NCBI GenBank assembly: GCA_028700325.1
Contig: JAQVSV010000015.1
Coordinates: forward strand, 1-36,185
Reading direction: 5' to 3'
Source: Elusimicrobiaceae bacterium
GTDB taxonomy: Bacteria; Elusimicrobiota; Elusimicrobia; Elusimicrobiales; Elusimicrobiaceae
DNA length: 36,185 nucleotides
The position numbers and the translations under genes are program-made. The notes below the pieces were generated by a model. The model saw nothing but the letters and a program-made list of their open reading frames with translations, was not told where the DNA came from and searched no databases. Every line of letters starts with the position of its first letter. The stretch's first letter is position 1. Positions 18,900 through 31,608 of this stretch are shown piece by piece.

Positions 18900-19904
18900 A
18901 TGATCAGTTTCCGGGGATGGGAAAGAGTGGCTGTCGCGATTTTGCTGGCAGCGGGGGTTACGGGCGGTTCTGCGTTCGCGCAGACTGAAACCGACAGTGT
19001 GCCGGTGGTATACGGGCTTGCTCCGGATTTAAACGAGTTTTATCTTTATGCCGACGGCGGCTGGGACGGCAACTGGTATGTTGGCTACAGCAACTGCTGG
19101 CTGATAAAGCTGCCGTCTATCGCAAAAAAAGGCTACAAAAAAGCGTATATAGGAGCGCGGTTGGGCCGGGCGAAAGGGTTTCCTGTTCCGAACCGGCCGT
19201 GGGAAAAACAGCCGGTTGACGGCAAAATATACATGGGGCTTTCCAAAGATGGCGGGTTCAATTCCCGGCAGAGCTATTTTCTGGTTGACAATAATGACAT
19301 CCCGCTGGAGGCCCAGCCTAAGGAAACGATAAAAGGGGTAGGCGGGGCGCAATGGTTCTGGACGGAAGTGCCGCTTGACGCGGTTTCATCCGTCAAACCG
19401 AATTATCTGGCGTTATGGGCCGAATCCGATTTCTTTACCGATGCGGCAAAATCGCCGATAATCGCCGGCGCTTCGCGCAAAAATTCCGGCGAGGATGCGG
19501 TATGGCTTAACAGTTCGCAGAAAGGCACTCCGCCGCGCGACGCAAAAACCGCGTTTGAACTGCCGATCAAGAACCTCATACCGGCCATGGCGGTCAAGCT
19601 GATTCCTGAAAACGAGCTTTCGGTGGTTGCCCGCGCGTTTAAAGCAGTTGCCGACGACACTAGCCTTGTGCTTTCCTTTTCGGTTATCGGGCAGGATGTA
19701 AGCCGGGCCTGGATCGAAATTTCATACGACAGGTTTAACTGGCTGCGGTTTTCAAAATTCATGTTTGAACCTCCGTACAGTTTCACCGTGCTGAATAAAA
19801 ATCTGCCGAAAGGAAAGTATTACTTCCGGGCGGTAGCGACGGATGCGCTTGAAAATGTCGGTTATAGCGAAGTGCTGGCCATGAATGGGGCGGATGTCCA
19901 GTAA
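18900..19904 (+). CDS. Secreted protein of unknown function with a C-terminal Ig-like region
   Basis: A 334-residue protein I do not recognise. Residues 1-27 form a signal peptide ending at a probable AFA-Q signal peptidase I site. The rest is rich in aromatic residues, Asn, Gly and Lys, as in beta-sandwich exported proteins. The part about 35-220 (DLNEFYLYADGGWDGNWYVGYSN, KKAYIGARLGRAK) has no motif I can name. About 240-330 resembles an Ig/fibronectin-like fold (ISYDRFNWLRFS.. YYFRAVATDALENVGYSE). It follows parB by 31 bp with AGGGAGG before the ATG, and ends just before a strong terminator, so it probably shares the parAB transcript or has its own promoter within parB. Confidence 0.7.
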   Translation: MISFRGWERVAVAILLAAGVTGGSAFAQTETDSVPVVYGLAPDLNEFYLYADGGWDGNWYVGYSNCWLIKLPSIAKKGYKKAYIGARLGRAKGFPVPNRPWEKQPVDGKIYMGLSKDGGFNSRQSYFLVDNNDIPLEAQPKETIKGVGGAQWFWTEVPLDAVSSVKPNYLALWAESDFFTDAAKSPIIAGASRKNSGEDAVWLNSSQKGTPPRDAKTAFELPIKNLIPAMAVKLIPENELSVVARAFKAVADDTSLVLSFSVIGQDVSRAWIEISYDRFNWLRFSKFMFEPPYSFTVLNKNLPKGKYYFRAVATDALENVGYSEVLAMNGADVQ

Positions 19905-22584: not shown

Positions 22585-22686
22585 GGTTGAAAAATCCTCG
22601 CTGAAATGTTCTTATATATAATAACATAATACTGGACGGGTGTAAGTGGAACTCCGCAGGATGGGTTGCCCGGCCCGAGATAATGC
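22585..22686. promoter_or_regulatory. Divergent promoter region between the glycosyltransferases and the receiver-like gene
   Basis: A 102-bp gap with a strongly AT-rich centre. A perfect TATAAT occurs at 22617-22622 on the plus strand, but no good -35 lies 16-18 bp before it. TATATAAG-like sequences read on the minus strand. It is the only place that can start both divergent transcripts. Confidence 0.45.
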
Positions 22687-24783
22687 ATGGCAAAAATTCT
22701 TGTAGTGGATAACGACGTTACGGCGATCACCGAACTGGGGCAGTGGCTGCCTACGGTAGGACATGCCGCCATGACCGCGCAGGATGCAGACGGCGCGGTA
22801 AAGGAGTTTCGAGCTTCGCGCCCTGATCTGATTTTGGCCGAGCTGGAAATCGCGGGCGGCGGCGCCGCGCTCATCAACCGGCTGCGCCGCGAAAAAGGAG
22901 CGGCGACGCCCGCGCTTCTTATGTCAAAGCTGCCCAGGGAGCAGGCGGGGCCGGTTTTGAAACTGTACAAAGTCTATTATATCGGCAGGCCGTTTAGCGC
23001 GCAGGAACTGCTCGCTGCGATCAATACCGCGCTTGGAGTGCCTTTTCAAGCTGCGCCGGTTCCAGCGGCGGAGCAGACGCCGGAGTCCGCGCCCGTTGCC
23101 GGGGTGCAGGCCGCGCCGGTGGAAGAAGGAAATGAGTATGTGGAATTTGATCTGGCACAAATGCAGGTTTTGGCGGCGGAGAAAGCGCGGGCGCAGCCGC
23201 AGAAGCAGCCGGAGCAGGATTTGATGGCGGTGCTGGATATTGACATTGAACGGAACCCTTCAAATACGCCTGTACCTGCGCCCGGGAAGGAACCTGAAGC
23301 GGCGGGTCCGCAGGGCAAACCTGAACCGGCCGCACGGACCATGGTGCCGCTTGCCACCAATCTGGCTGATTTCCCCGAGCTTAAAATAGAGGGCTCGTCC
23401 GGTGAAGTTTCTGAGGCCGGCGGTTCTGCCGCCGGGGAAGCTGGTGCCGCGCCGGCCGGTCATGAAACGGGGCCGCAGCAAGCCCTGACGGAGGCGCCGC
23501 CCGCGGCGGTTGATTTGCGATTGACGCAGGCGCCCGTGTTAAAGCCGGTTTCGCAGGAGCTTTCCCCCGGAGCTGTGGAAAATGTCCGGCCTGATGAGGC
23601 GGCTCCGTCTGCCGCACTGCCGGGACAGGCTCAGGCTGATTTGGCGGAAAGAAAACCCGATGCCGGTGCGGTTTCGTCCGGCGAAAATTCAGCCGTGCGC
23701 CCTGCGCCGGAGGCCGGGGGGGCCGGTGAAAAGGGCGCGGGCGAGCGGCAACACTCGGTTTTTGATGTGCCGCCGGTTATTACGCCGGTCAAAATTGAAC
23801 CGGCGGACTCGGCCCCTGCCGCCGGGCCCGAAGCGGGCGGCGGGCAGGCGGTTTCGCAGGGTTCGGCGCGTACTGCGGCGACTGGCGAAGAGCCGGGTAT
23901 GACAGGACAGGATGGTGCGGCGGCTGGCGGCGTGCCGGATGAAAAAATCGCCGGGGGTTCTTCCGGTTCCACCGAACGGACGCAGAGCCCTGAACCGGCG
24001 CGGATTTCCCGCGCGGACTCAGGCGGAACGGAAAGTTCACGCAGGGAAGTTGCTCAACGGGATCCGGCCGCACCGGTTCCTGCCGCCGAAAGCGCGGTGT
24101 CCGCGCCTGAACTTGCCGCTCCTTTGCCGAGCCTGCCCGAGCTGGTTTTGCCGCAGCAGCCGGCGGCCGCGGAAAAATCCGTGGAGAAAACGCAGCGTGC
24201 AGAGCGGATTTTGCCGCAGGTCGAACCGCGCGAGTCTGCGCGCCAGGCCAGACTGACCGGAACGGATCCTGGTTCCGCTATTCCGGCCGGCACGGCGACT
24301 TCAAGGTCGGTTTTGCTCGGTTTGATTTCCACCAATCCCTCGTTAAAAATCACGGAGCCCGCGCAGCTGGTTCCCGGGAATGTTTTTGTGCAGCATCAGG
24401 CGGTGCGCATTACGGCTACGGGGCTTGATCCTGCCGGACAGGACGGCAGCGCAGCGCCTACCGTAAAAGGCGAGGTTGTGGCTTCTGGCGGCGCGAACGT
24501 CGCGGCGCAGGCTGCCCCGGCGAACCAGCAGGCGGAGCAGCTGCTTCCGGTTTCGTTCTCGGCGTTCGGCACACCTACTGTAAAGCCCGCGTCTGCCGCG
24601 GAGCCGGCGGCGTTGCCGGAGAGCAAGGCCGAGCCTGTCGCGATTATGCGGCCCAGGCCTGTCGCGCCCGGCGAATTCCCCGTGCCTATCGAAGAATTGA
24701 GCGCGGCCGTCTCGGAAGAAAAAATCACGTTCAAAAGTTTCTGGGACGAAGACGAAACGTCAATCTGGGTCGGACCGCGCTGA
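22687..24783 (+). CDS. Degenerate receiver-domain protein with a very long disordered tail
   Basis: A 698-residue protein in three parts. Residues 1-118 have a CheY-like receiver fold: KILVVDNDVTAI supplies the acidic pair Asp8/Asp10, PDLILAELEIAGGG is strand 3, and YYIGRPFSAQELLAAI is the end of the fold. The phospho-acceptor aspartate is Glu52, and the conserved K-P lysine is Arg101, so this is a pseudo-receiver. Residues about 120-660 are almost pure Pro/Ala/Glu/Gly/Ser, predicted disordered, with repeated PAPE/AAP-type runs and no domain I can see. The last about 40 residues (EELSAAVSEEKITFKSFWDEDETSIWVGPR) are again of globular or motif-like composition with three aromatic residues. It is alone in its transcription unit, with a terminator at 25044. 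Role unknown; a scaffold controlled by its tail peptide is possible. Confidence 0.75.
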   Translation: MAKILVVDNDVTAITELGQWLPTVGHAAMTAQDADGAVKEFRASRPDLILAELEIAGGGAALINRLRREKGAATPALLMSKLPREQAGPVLKLYKVYYIGRPFSAQELLAAINTALGVPFQAAPVPAAEQTPESAPVAGVQAAPVEEGNEYVEFDLAQMQVLAAEKARAQPQKQPEQDLMAVLDIDIERNPSNTPVPAPGKEPEAAGPQGKPEPAARTMVPLATNLADFPELKIEGSSGEVSEAGGSAAGEAGAAPAGHETGPQQALTEAPPAAVDLRLTQAPVLKPVSQELSPGAVENVRPDEAAPSAALPGQAQADLAERKPDAGAVSSGENSAVRPAPEAGGAGEKGAGERQHSVFDVPPVITPVKIEPADSAPAAGPEAGGGQAVSQGSARTAATGEEPGMTGQDGAAAGGVPDEKIAGGSSGSTERTQSPEPARISRADSGGTESSRREVAQRDPAAPVPAAESAVSAPELAAPLPSLPELVLPQQPAAAEKSVEKTQRAERILPQVEPRESARQARLTGTDPGSAIPAGTATSRSVLLGLISTNPSLKITEPAQLVPGNVFVQHQAVRITATGLDPAGQDGSAAPTVKGEVVASGGANVAAQAAPANQQAEQLLPVSFSAFGTPTVKPASAAEPAALPESKAEPVAIMRPRPVAPGEFPVPIEELSAAVSEEKITFKSFWDEDETSIWVGPR

Positions 24784-25043: not shown

Positions 25044-25080
25044 AAATGCCGCCGTCATTAAAATGACGGCGGCATTTTTT
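25044..25080. terminator. Bidirectional intrinsic terminator between convergent genes
   Basis: A perfect 16-bp stem, AAATGCCGCCGTCATT (25044-25059) with AATGACGGCGGCATTT (25062-25077), then six T on the plus strand. Because the stem begins with AAA, it also gives a short U run for transcripts on the minus strand. It serves the receiver-like gene and the agmatinase gene. Confidence 0.9.
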
Positions 25081-29670: not shown

Positions 29671-30243
29671 ATGACCGACGCCGAACTGGTCAGGCTTGTC
29701 CGGTGCGGTGACGGGGCTGCTTTTGAAGCCCTGATGACCAGGTATAAAGGTCCCGTTTACGGTTATATTCTCTCCCTGGTTCACAGCGAAGATGTTGCGG
29801 GCGATATTTTCCAGGAAGTGTTTATCAAGGTGTTTAAAAATATCGGCGGGTACCGCGAAGAGGGGAAATTCGGGGCCTGGGTCTACAGAATGGCGTCTAA
29901 TCTGGCGATGGACCATTTCCGCCGGAGCGGACGGCTGGGCGCGAAAGAGATTGCGCTGGACGGAGAAGACGCGGAAACGGAGCTGCATTCCGTGATCGCG
30001 TCTTCCGAACAGACTCCCGAACAGCGGCTGGCAGGGCTGGAAGATGTCGTGCGGGTGCGCGCGGCGCTAGACCGGCTGCCGCCCGAACAGAAGGAAGTCG
30101 TCATGCTTAAAGAGTTTTCGGGCATGACGTTTCAGGAAATAGCCGATTCGCTGCAGGTGCCGCTCGGAACCGTGCTCGCGCGCGGAAGCCGGGCGATAAA
30201 AAAACTGCGGACGATGCTGGAGAGCGAAAATGAGCCCATGTGA
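29671..30243 (+). CDS. ECF-type RNA polymerase sigma factor
   Basis: A 190-residue group 4 sigma factor. Region 2 (about 8-85) has FEALMTRYKGPVYGYILS, AGDIFQEVFIKVFKNI, and WVYRMASNLAMDHFRR. Region 4 (about 125-180) has ALDRLPPEQKEVVMLKEFSGMTFQEIADSLQVPLGTVLARGSRAIKKLR, the -35-binding helix-turn-helix. The linker is acidic and Glu/Ala-rich. Its end overlaps the zinc anti-sigma gene by 14 bp, the usual arrangement for an RpoE-like stress sigma with its anti-sigma partner. Target genes are not identifiable here beyond the neighbours. Confidence 0.93.
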   Translation: MTDAELVRLVRCGDGAAFEALMTRYKGPVYGYILSLVHSEDVAGDIFQEVFIKVFKNIGGYREEGKFGAWVYRMASNLAMDHFRRSGRLGAKEIALDGEDAETELHSVIASSEQTPEQRLAGLEDVVRVRAALDRLPPEQKEVVMLKEFSGMTFQEIADSLQVPLGTVLARGSRAIKKLRTMLESENEPM

Positions 30244-30826
30244 ACGCGAAGAGCAGGTTCTGCTGTATCACTACGGCGAGCTTTCGGATGACGGGAGAGC
30301 GGAGTGTGAGCGTCATCTTAAAGTTTGCGGGCAGTGCCGGCTTGGCCTGGCCGCGCTCGCAGCGGTCGGGCAGTTTAAGCAGCCGCGGCAGGTGCCGGCG
30401 GAGTTGGTGGCCGGCGTGCGCCGGCGGGTGCTGCCGGGCAGGCTTGCCGGCTGGCTGCGCGGGCATCCGTGGTTCCGCTACAGCACCGTCGCCACGGGAC
30501 TGGCGGCCGGGCTGCTGGCGTTCTCCGGCATCGAACTGGGCAACAGGGCGGTTTCGGACGGGCGTGCGGTGCTATCGCATGAAACGGTCATCAGCAGCAG
30601 GGCGGCGGATATTTCCGCCAGCATCAGCGCCGCGCGAAGCAGCACGGCGCTCGCCGGCCACGAAAAAGCCTACAGCGCTTATCTTGAAACAAACGACACG
30701 GACGGATTCTTCAGTTCCGCGGAGGCCATGTACTACGCCGGTTCCGAAACGGATGACGTGAACCGTCTCCTTGACAACATAAACGCCATCAGAACCGATA
30801 TAAAAAACGAGAGGACTGCAAAATGA
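30230..30826 (+). CDS. Transmembrane anti-sigma factor with zinc-finger (zf-HC2) domain
   Basis: A 198-residue membrane protein. The N-terminal cytoplasmic anti-sigma domain has the HxxxCxxC motif of zinc anti-sigma factors: His29, Cys33, Cys36, with Cys4 or Cys26 as a possible fourth ligand. One membrane segment lies at about 84-103 (TVATGLAAGLLAFSGIEL). The remaining 95 residues would be periplasmic and predicted helical. It overlaps the sigma gene and the next gene (ATGA), so the three are translated together. It probably holds the sigma factor until a cell-envelope signal arrives. Confidence 0.85.
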   Translation: MSPCEREEQVLLYHYGELSDDGRAECERHLKVCGQCRLGLAALAAVGQFKQPRQVPAELVAGVRRRVLPGRLAGWLRGHPWFRYSTVATGLAAGLLAFSGIELGNRAVSDGRAVLSHETVISSRAADISASISAARSSTALAGHEKAYSAYLETNDTDGFFSSAEAMYYAGSETDDVNRLLDNINAIRTDIKNERTAK

Positions 30827-31608
30827 AAAAAACATTATTGATGCTGGCTGTAACGGCTGGTTTATGCGGCGGCGCGGTGTTTGCCGGTTCGCCGCATGAG
30901 ATGGACGAGGACGGGCCGGAAATTCAGGGGCCCGGCCGGCAGATGCCGGATGACGAGGACGGTATCGCCGGCGCGAATCCGGATATGAGGTTCCGGCCGG
31001 ACATGCGGGATTCCGGCATTGCGCCGCGCAAAGGCGCAATCCGCAAAGCGATGAAGCCCGGCAAAGGCGAGAAGGGAAACAGGGACAGAGGGCTCTTTCC
31101 CGGCAAAGGAACCGATGATCGCATGGAGGACGGCAAGATGTGCCCCGAGCTGATGCAGAAAATGGAAGGCAAGTTTCTGGCCGGCGTGGCCGAGCTCGAC
31201 AAAGAGTTCTCGGCGCAGCTGGAGGCGCTGAAGGATTCCGATCCCGGCCTGTACCGGCGCGTTTCGATGCGGCTGGGCCAGTCCATGTTCGTGAGCAGAA
31301 GAACCGGCGACGAGTCGGCTGCCAGAACCGGCATCGAAATCGCCAAGGCGGAAGTGTCAAAGTCCGAGCTGATGAACAAGTACAGAACTGCCAAGAGCGA
31401 CTCTGACAAAAAAGATATCAAGTCACAGCTGCGCACCGTGCTGGGCAACGAGTTTGACCTGCGCCAGAAGTTCGAGGAGGACCGCGTGAAAATGGTGGAG
31501 AAAGATCTCGCGGAACTTAAGAAAGCCGTGCGTGCGCGCAAAAACAGCAGAAGCGACATGGTGAATGACAAACTTGATGAAATACTGGGCGAAAAACCGC
31601 GCTGGTAA
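30823..31608 (+). CDS. Secreted, highly charged helical protein of the sigma operon
   Basis: A 261-residue exported protein with signal peptide MKKTLLMLAVTAGLCGGAVFA. Residues 22-95 are Asp/Pro/Gly/Arg-rich and low in complexity (DEDGPEIQGPGRQMPDDEDG). Residues 100-261 are long charged helices (ELMQKMEGKFLAGVAELDKEFSAQLEALK.. KKDIKSQLRTVLGNEFDLRQKFEEDRVKMVEKDLAELKKAV). The E-F-x-L-R-Q-x-x-E pattern recalls the LTxxQ/Spy/CpxP-like periplasmic proteins, which act as chaperones or stress sensors. That likeness is weak. Its place directly behind the anti-sigma gene, with an ATGA overlap, suggests a periplasmic modulator of it. A terminator follows at 31637. Confidence 0.7.
   Translation: MKKTLLMLAVTAGLCGGAVFAGSPHEMDEDGPEIQGPGRQMPDDEDGIAGANPDMRFRPDMRDSGIAPRKGAIRKAMKPGKGEKGNRDRGLFPGKGTDDRMEDGKMCPELMQKMEGKFLAGVAELDKEFSAQLEALKDSDPGLYRRVSMRLGQSMFVSRRTGDESAARTGIEIAKAEVSKSELMNKYRTAKSDSDKKDIKSQLRTVLGNEFDLRQKFEEDRVKMVEKDLAELKKAVRARKNSRSDMVNDKLDEILGEKPRW

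What the first reader, a model, noticed from the sequence alone, without database searches (positions are those of the whole stretch)
22687..24783. Pseudo-receiver joined to a 540-residue disordered Pro/Ala/Glu tail and a conserved-looking end peptide
The receiver fold is intact, but the phospho-acceptor is Glu52 and the switch lysine is Arg101, so it may mimic the phosphorylated state or be phosphorylation-independent. The tail has no visible domain, then finishes with an aromatic, acidic peptide (KITFKSFWDEDETSIWVGPR). Such a layout suggests a long tether, for example between two cellular structures. I know of no described protein with it.
Basis: partly seen in the sequence, partly recalled or inferred. 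Interest (0 to 1): 0.5.

Follow-up and report, generated by a model that had tools for sequence, protein, structure and literature searches.

The report
Orphan pseudo-receiver with long disordered tail
A bacterium of the phylum Elusimicrobiota carries a gene for a signalling-type domain that has lost its phosphorylation site and drags a very long floppy tail; it looks like a real and unusual gene, but no relative with the same tail was found, and a similar layout is already known from the Myxococcus polarity protein RomR.

Summary
Window 22687-24783 (+) encodes 698 residues: a receiver domain (PF00072, 34.3 bits; intact fold), a Pro/Ala/Glu/Gly-rich tail without a recognisable domain, and an acidic, aromatic end. 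Pocket: Glu52 at the acceptor, Asn9 at acid 2, Arg101 for the lysine; Ser80 and Tyr98 kept. These three swaps are among the commonest of described pseudo-receivers (PMC12632262). The tail reads as coding and is predicted disordered, with one helix and a weak end hairpin.

The 'conserved-looking' end is not shown to be conserved: a search of 340 genomes of the phylum found receiver-only relatives, and the end gave only weak hits in 149 genomes of the order. The nearest receivers mostly keep Asp and Lys and have no long tail. The layout has a described counterpart: RomR, with receiver, variable disordered Pro-rich linker and Glu-rich end with Trp. But no MglB/MglC-type gene was found here.

Best reading, inferred: a phosphorylation-independent docking module on a long flexible tether. 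New variant of a known kind; modest interest.

The parts
22687..24783 (+). whole gene, 698 aa, apparently its own transcription unit (divergent from a glycosyltransferase gene upstream, convergent with speB downstream)
22693..23040 (+). pseudo-receiver domain, residues 3-118
   Evidence: PF00072 34.3 bits; AlphaFold2 block-mean pLDDT 88-97; Foldseek receivers
22840..22842 (+). Glu52 codon at the phospho-acceptor position
22987..22989 (+). Arg101 codon at the switch-lysine position
23041..24666 (+). disordered Ala/Pro/Glu/Gly-rich tail, residues 119-660
   Evidence: composition, no Pfam match, pLDDT mostly under 50
23152..23190 (+). only helix of four or more residues predicted between residues 119 and 660 (156-168), possible recognition element
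   Evidence: block-mean pLDDT 53 and 73
23383..24726 (+). stretch holding five Lys-Ile dipeptides (residues 233, 369, 420, 554, 679), four with a Pro 2-3 residues before
   Evidence: most enriched dipeptide, 1 of 400 shuffles as extreme
24667..24780 (+). acidic, aromatic end, residues 661-698
24730..24777 (+). possible beta-hairpin, strands 682-686 and 693-697
   Evidence: low confidence (block-mean pLDDT 51 and 60)
25044..25077 (.). 15-pair palindromic stem between the convergent genes, terminator-like
22601..22630 (+). sigma-70-like hexamers CTGAAA-18-CATAAT upstream (weak, consensus only)

Best explanation
A lineage-specific adaptor. The receiver no longer takes part in phosphotransfer and serves as a fixed protein-docking module (Glu52 perhaps holding it near an active-like state with Ser80 and Tyr98). 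The roughly 540-residue disordered tail is a flexible tether that carries short binding motifs (a helix at 156-168, recurring Lys-Ile sites, the acidic/aromatic end) and so holds two or more partners together or places one at a cell site. Shown: domain layout and changed pocket; predicted: disorder. Inferred: loss of phosphotransfer, docking, tethering, partners, location.
For: Receiver fold kept while the phosphotransfer pocket is changed at three positions. All 28 of the genome's other receiver matches that could be read at these columns, of 30 fetched and 41 found, keep Asp and Lys, so the change is particular to this gene as far as seen. The swaps are among the commonest of pseudo-receivers, and Glu is the commonest acceptor replacement, 26% (PMC4395418). 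Tail predicted disordered and reading as coding. Lys-Ile five times in residues 119-698 against 0.5 expected; as most extreme dipeptide matched by 1 of 400 shuffles. Layout precedents: RomR and FrzS, where linker or end parts are needed for polar location or function.
Against: No homologue with the tail, so neither end peptide nor motifs are shown to be under selection. The wider motif tests were not significant (gapped triples p 0.06; short patterns, 64 of 300 shuffles as good or better). No operon partner. The end structure is low confidence. Coding margins over other frames are small in parts of the tail. A hydropathy index reaches receiver-like values around residues 521-671, so part of the tail may not be plain linker.
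Confidence: 0.45

Rival explanations
1. A fast-evolving or decaying response regulator: a receiver that lost its output or its kinase and picked up an unconstrained low-complexity tail, with little or no function in the tail.
For: Found in one genome only; longest branch in the receiver tree (1.82, next 1.41, median 0.49); no homologue of tail or end; an Asp-less, tail-less receiver also occurs in a related genome (L023), so receivers of this kind do lose the site.
Against: The 698-codon frame is intact with coding-like codon use; receiver fold and the pair Ser80/Tyr98 are kept; the end is aromatic and acidic, unlike the linker.
Confidence: 0.25
2. A constitutively 'on' signalling output: Glu52 mimics phosphorylation so that the receiver permanently engages a CheY-type target (for example the pilus machinery; pilM lies 9 kb away), with the tail only adding solubility or abundance control.
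For: Asp-to-Glu can act as a phosphomimic; Ser80 and Tyr98 kept; PilM encoded in the window.
Against: Asp-to-Glu alone is often not enough, and changing the Glu of ChxR did not abolish its activity (PMC4395418); no linkage to a kinase or pilus operon; closeness to pilM is not operonic.
Confidence: 0.15
3. A diverged RomR, part of a MglA/MglB/MglC polarity module.
For: Same three-part layout: receiver, unstructured Pro-rich linker, Glu-rich end with Trp.
Against: No Robl_LC7 (MglB/MglC-type) match at E<=0.01 in the genome, 99% complete; of three PF00025 matches the best is an Obg-like GTPase (by eye) and the other two, below the cut-off, lie in long frames and were not named; the end is not predicted as the long helix of RomR-C.
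Confidence: 0.04

Closest known systems
RomR (Myxococcus xanthus and relatives)
   Same: N-terminal receiver, unstructured Pro-rich linker of variable length, short Glu-rich C-terminal region with Trp and Pro (PMC3441718, passages and section 7; PMC12719032, passages)
   Different: RomR-C is helical, conserved across most homologues and binds MglC; here no MglB/MglC-type gene was found, the end has no homologues and is weakly predicted as helix plus hairpin; the linker here is about twice as long; the acceptor here is Glu (RomR's acceptor was not checked)
FrzS (Myxococcus xanthus)
   Same: Pseudo-receiver on a long extension with a functionally required C-terminal tail (PMC1974792, passages); its receiver is among the solved structures matched by sequence
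   Different: FrzS has a 258-residue coiled coil; here a Pro-rich disordered tail with a single 13-residue predicted helix before residue 660
Aspartate-less / pseudo-receiver domains
   Same: Glu at the acceptor, Asn at acid 2, Arg at the lysine (PMC12632262, PMC4395418, passages)
   Different: None seen at the domain level; the difference is the attached tail
Elusimicrobiota receivers with short Pro-rich tails (L025, L026, L009, L011, L013, L142, L148)
   Same: Related receivers in the same phylum with Pro-rich C-terminal tails
   Different: Asp and Lys kept in the five tabulated (L025, L026, L009, L011, L013; L142 and L148 by eye); tails of about 24-56 residues, several with a PPPPP string near the end; no evident similarity to this tail by eye

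Membership tests
Response regulator receiver (PF00072) | full-length domain match and (beta-alpha)5 fold | tested here: met
   34.3 bits against cut-off 30.2, model 1-111 of 111; block-mean pLDDT 88-97; Foldseek
Pseudo-receiver / aspartate-less receiver | no Asp at the phospho-acceptor, further pocket residues changed | tested here: met
   E52, N9, R101
Pseudo-receiver / aspartate-less receiver | does not accept phosphate | not testable with these tools
   needs biochemistry
RomR | receiver plus unstructured Pro-rich linker | tested here: met
RomR | conserved helical Glu-rich RomR-C with invariant Trp and Pro | tested here: inconclusive
   7 Glu, 2 Trp and 4 Pro in residues 661-698, but a weak helix-plus-hairpin prediction; no RomR-C profile was run
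RomR | co-occurs with MglA and MglB | tested here: not met
   0 Robl_LC7 matches at E<=0.01; best of three PF00025 matches is Obg-like by eye, the other two are below the cut-off and unnamed
FrzS | long coiled coil after the pseudo-receiver | tested here: not met
   12.5% Pro tail, one 13-residue helix between 119 and 660; no dedicated coiled-coil predictor was run
Encapsulin cargo (considered because the end reads IWVGPR after a Pro/Ala linker; motif recalled) | encapsulin shell gene in the genome | tested here: not met
   PF04454: no match at E<=0.1 in the genome

The most novel reading that the evidence does not exclude
A polarity or organelle scaffold evolved independently of the Mgl system: a pseudo-receiver anchored at one structure with a multivalent disordered tail whose repeated Pro-x-x-Lys-Ile-like sites and end hairpin bind a second structure, converging on the RomR layout in another phylum.
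Probability: 0.1. Interest if true: 0.55.

Novelty: new variant of a known kind. Interest (0 to 1): 0.28.

Why it matters
How bacterial pseudo-receivers are switched is called a mystery in a recent review (PMC12632262, abstract start and passages). A natural case in which the only recognisable domain is a pseudo-receiver and the rest is disordered would be a clean test of the idea that these domains are plain docking modules, and a possible second invention of the RomR layout. As it stands it is one orphan gene in one draft genome, so the weight is modest.

Tried and rejected
C-terminal 78 residues against 149 genomes of the order: 56 of 149, the own one included, gave a match at E<=1; the best other than self was 6.4e-4. 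Seven of the hits that run far towards the end were fetched. Of these, by eye, four lie in an L-aspartate-oxidase-like protein (one of them inside a longer frame), one in a Ser/Thr-kinase-like protein with a Pro/Ala tail, one in a 425-residue protein I did not name, and one gave no frame. Taken as chance. Most of the top-scoring hits stop before the end peptide (query position 59 onward); one, L065, reaches position 67 but lies in a Ser/Arg-rich frame without likeness. Several weak hits that reach the end (in G067, G080, G094) were not followed.

Whole-protein patterns against GTDB 220 contigs: 52 stretches, none a relative. Phylum search: 11 of 340 genomes at E<=1e-11, the ten other than self receiver-only; only the best three candidates of each genome were scored there.

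Synteny: parA-parB near speB(-)-pvlArgDC(-) is shared in several relatives; by eye no receiver ORF between speB and parB in L122, L123, L124, L126, nor after speB in L125. tblastn of this protein: no match at E<=1e-5 in 80 of 80 named loci (best 4.2; some stop soon after speB). A receiver profile on 100 loci around speB (L122-L141, L163-L242) found six receivers in five loci; two of them, ordinary tail-less receivers in L164 and L232, lie 0.9 and 0.4 kb downstream of speB but on the same strand as speB, not convergent. I do not call them orthologues, but L232 could be a distant tail-less cousin. Neighbours of seven related receivers gave no lead; three further fetched stretches (L160-L162) were not looked at.

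RomR membership rejected on missing partners. Encapsulin cargo idea rejected. Defence-system models: none at E<=0.01. Residues 541-698 against PDB sequences: best E 0.065, taken as chance. Single-sequence AlphaFold2: useless (pLDDT 38). The receiver tree puts the gene beside a clade of order-level receivers (support 88/76) on the longest branch, so its place is unsure.

Full report
What is there. The ORF at 22687-24783 (+) is exactly as described: 698 residues from an ATG. Residues 4-113 match the receiver family PF00072 over all 111 positions at 34.3 bits, above the curated cut-off of 30.2. With seven receiver homologues as an alignment, AlphaFold2 gives residues 1-120 a complete (beta-alpha)5 fold at block-mean pLDDT 88-97, and the Foldseek matches listed are solved receivers or receiver-bearing proteins. 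Without an alignment the model was worthless.

The pocket. Column by column the protein has Asp8 and Asn9 for the acidic pair, Glu52 for the acceptor, Ser80 for the Thr/Ser, Tyr98 at the switch aromatic and Arg101 for the lysine (roles of the columns recalled from CheY). Of the genome's 41 receiver matches, 30 were fetched as loci; 28 could be read at these columns and all 28 have Asp and Lys. L037 came out misaligned there but has Asp and Lys; L057 was skipped; of the 11 matches without a locus in that call one is this gene and the other ten were not examined as such. A review of pseudo-receivers (PMC12632262, passages) states that the second acid is commonly replaced by Asn, the acceptor by Glu, the Thr by Ala and the Lys by Arg: this protein shows three of those four. 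PMC4395418 (passages) gives Glu as the commonest acceptor replacement, 26%, and warns that Glu alone often does not activate.

The tail. Residues 119-660 are 19% Ala, 12.5% Pro, 9% Glu and 9% Gly, without Cys or Trp. Residues 121-498 and 499-698 match no Pfam model even at E 10. The model's pLDDT is mostly under 50, with a helix at 156-168 (block means 53 and 73) and, at the end, a short helix (668-674) and two strands (682-686, 693-697) at block means 45-60. A charge-hydropathy index is near zero over much of the tail but reaches receiver-like values around 521-671, so a weakly ordered stretch there is not excluded. On codon use the ORF frame is best of six across the tail except in one window (23401-23700, another frame better) and one tie (23851-24150), with small margins in places. 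Lys-Ile occurs five times in residues 119-698 against 0.5 expected; as the most extreme dipeptide it is matched by 1 of 400 shuffles, whereas the search over gapped triples gives p 0.06 and the short-pattern search 64 of 300 shuffles as good or better. I take it as a hint only.

Where it lives. A scan with the neighbouring arginine decarboxylase returned 80 loci at 67-80% identity; by my count 72 titles carry an Elusimicrobi- or Avelusimicrobium name, one is Endomicrobium and seven say only 'uncultured bacterium'. Contigs of the same-family genomes G002 and G007 have the same lengths as two records titled uncultured Elusimicrobiales. The phylum is therefore Elusimicrobiota; the family is probably Elusimicrobiaceae (inference; one same-family genome has the length I recall for Elusimicrobium minutum). 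No same-genus genome appeared among the 40 relatives searched. The window is native: parA, parB, speB and the decarboxylase gene lie together in several relatives. This gene is absent from that place in the relatives read and gives no match at E<=1e-5 in 80 of 80 named loci. In 100 loci around speB a receiver profile found six receivers in five loci; two of them are ordinary tail-less ones 0.4-0.9 kb downstream of speB, on the same strand as speB and so not in the convergent arrangement of this gene; a distant tail-less cousin there is possible. The gene stands between a divergent glycosyltransferase gene and convergent speB, with a 15-pair palindrome between the convergent ends.

Relatives. 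In its own genome only one other place reaches E<=1e-3, a receiver at the start of a protein that by eye is a GspE/PilB-type ATPase. Among 340 genomes of the phylum, ten besides the own one have a match at E<=1e-11, all to the receiver, 30-40% identity. Those nearest receivers are mostly single or tandem Asp/Lys receivers (by eye), and several in the same order carry short Pro-rich tails. One related receiver, L023 of G037, has Gly at the acceptor column, keeps the Lys and has no tail. The tree places the gene beside an order-level receiver clade with weak support and on the longest branch (1.82, next 1.41).

How it may work. The changed pocket in an intact fold suggests phosphorylation-independent docking; the tail suggests a tether. 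Precedents are RomR (receiver, unstructured Pro-rich linker with lineage-specific length and composition, Glu-rich end; linker and end each sufficient for polar targeting, both needed for motility: PMC3441718; end binds MglC: PMC12719032) and FrzS (pseudo-receiver controlling polar location: PMC1974792). By layout it may work like these; by membership it is neither: the genome has no Robl_LC7 match at E<=0.01 and no MglA-like GTPase that I could identify (two sub-threshold matches in long frames were not named), and the tail does not look like a coiled coil. The pilus link (pilM in the window) is only proximity.

Literature. Searches of the held open-access library found RomR, FrzS and the pseudo-receiver papers; none of the titles or passages I saw describes this protein. 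Most subscription papers, and preprints, are not held.

Verdict. New variant of a known kind, interest 0.28.

Noticed in passing
L025:1501-2007, L026:1483-1896, L009:59-517, L142:586-1032: Receivers in related genomes of the order end in a short Pro-rich tail with MNPNPPPPP-like strings; a similar string is the linker between the two receivers of tandem-receiver proteins, one of which lies directly downstream in L142.
   Followed up: partly
L002:1480-3342 (own genome, contig C29): A receiver fused to what by eye is a GspE/PilB-type secretion or pilus ATPase, a possible response-regulated motor.
   Followed up: no
L023:1528-1902: A tail-less receiver of a related genome with Gly at the acceptor column and Lys kept, another pseudo-receiver of the same broad group.
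   Followed up: partly
L232:2295-2672: An ordinary Asp/Lys receiver without tail 0.4 kb downstream of speB in an Elusimicrobia genome (GWB2_63_16), same strand as speB; possible distant cousin.
   Followed up: partly
window 29671-31608: Sigma factor of ECF type with an anti-sigma-like protein (zinc-finger match below the cut-off) and a following exported-looking charged protein without a Pfam family above cut-off.
   Followed up: no
window 18900-19904: 334-residue protein with a signal-peptide-like start (by eye) and no Pfam family above cut-off, directly after parB.
   Followed up: no
L148:1429-1950: A receiver from another family of the class with a Pro/Gln-rich tail and an acidic end, a smaller look-alike of the layout.
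   Followed up: no
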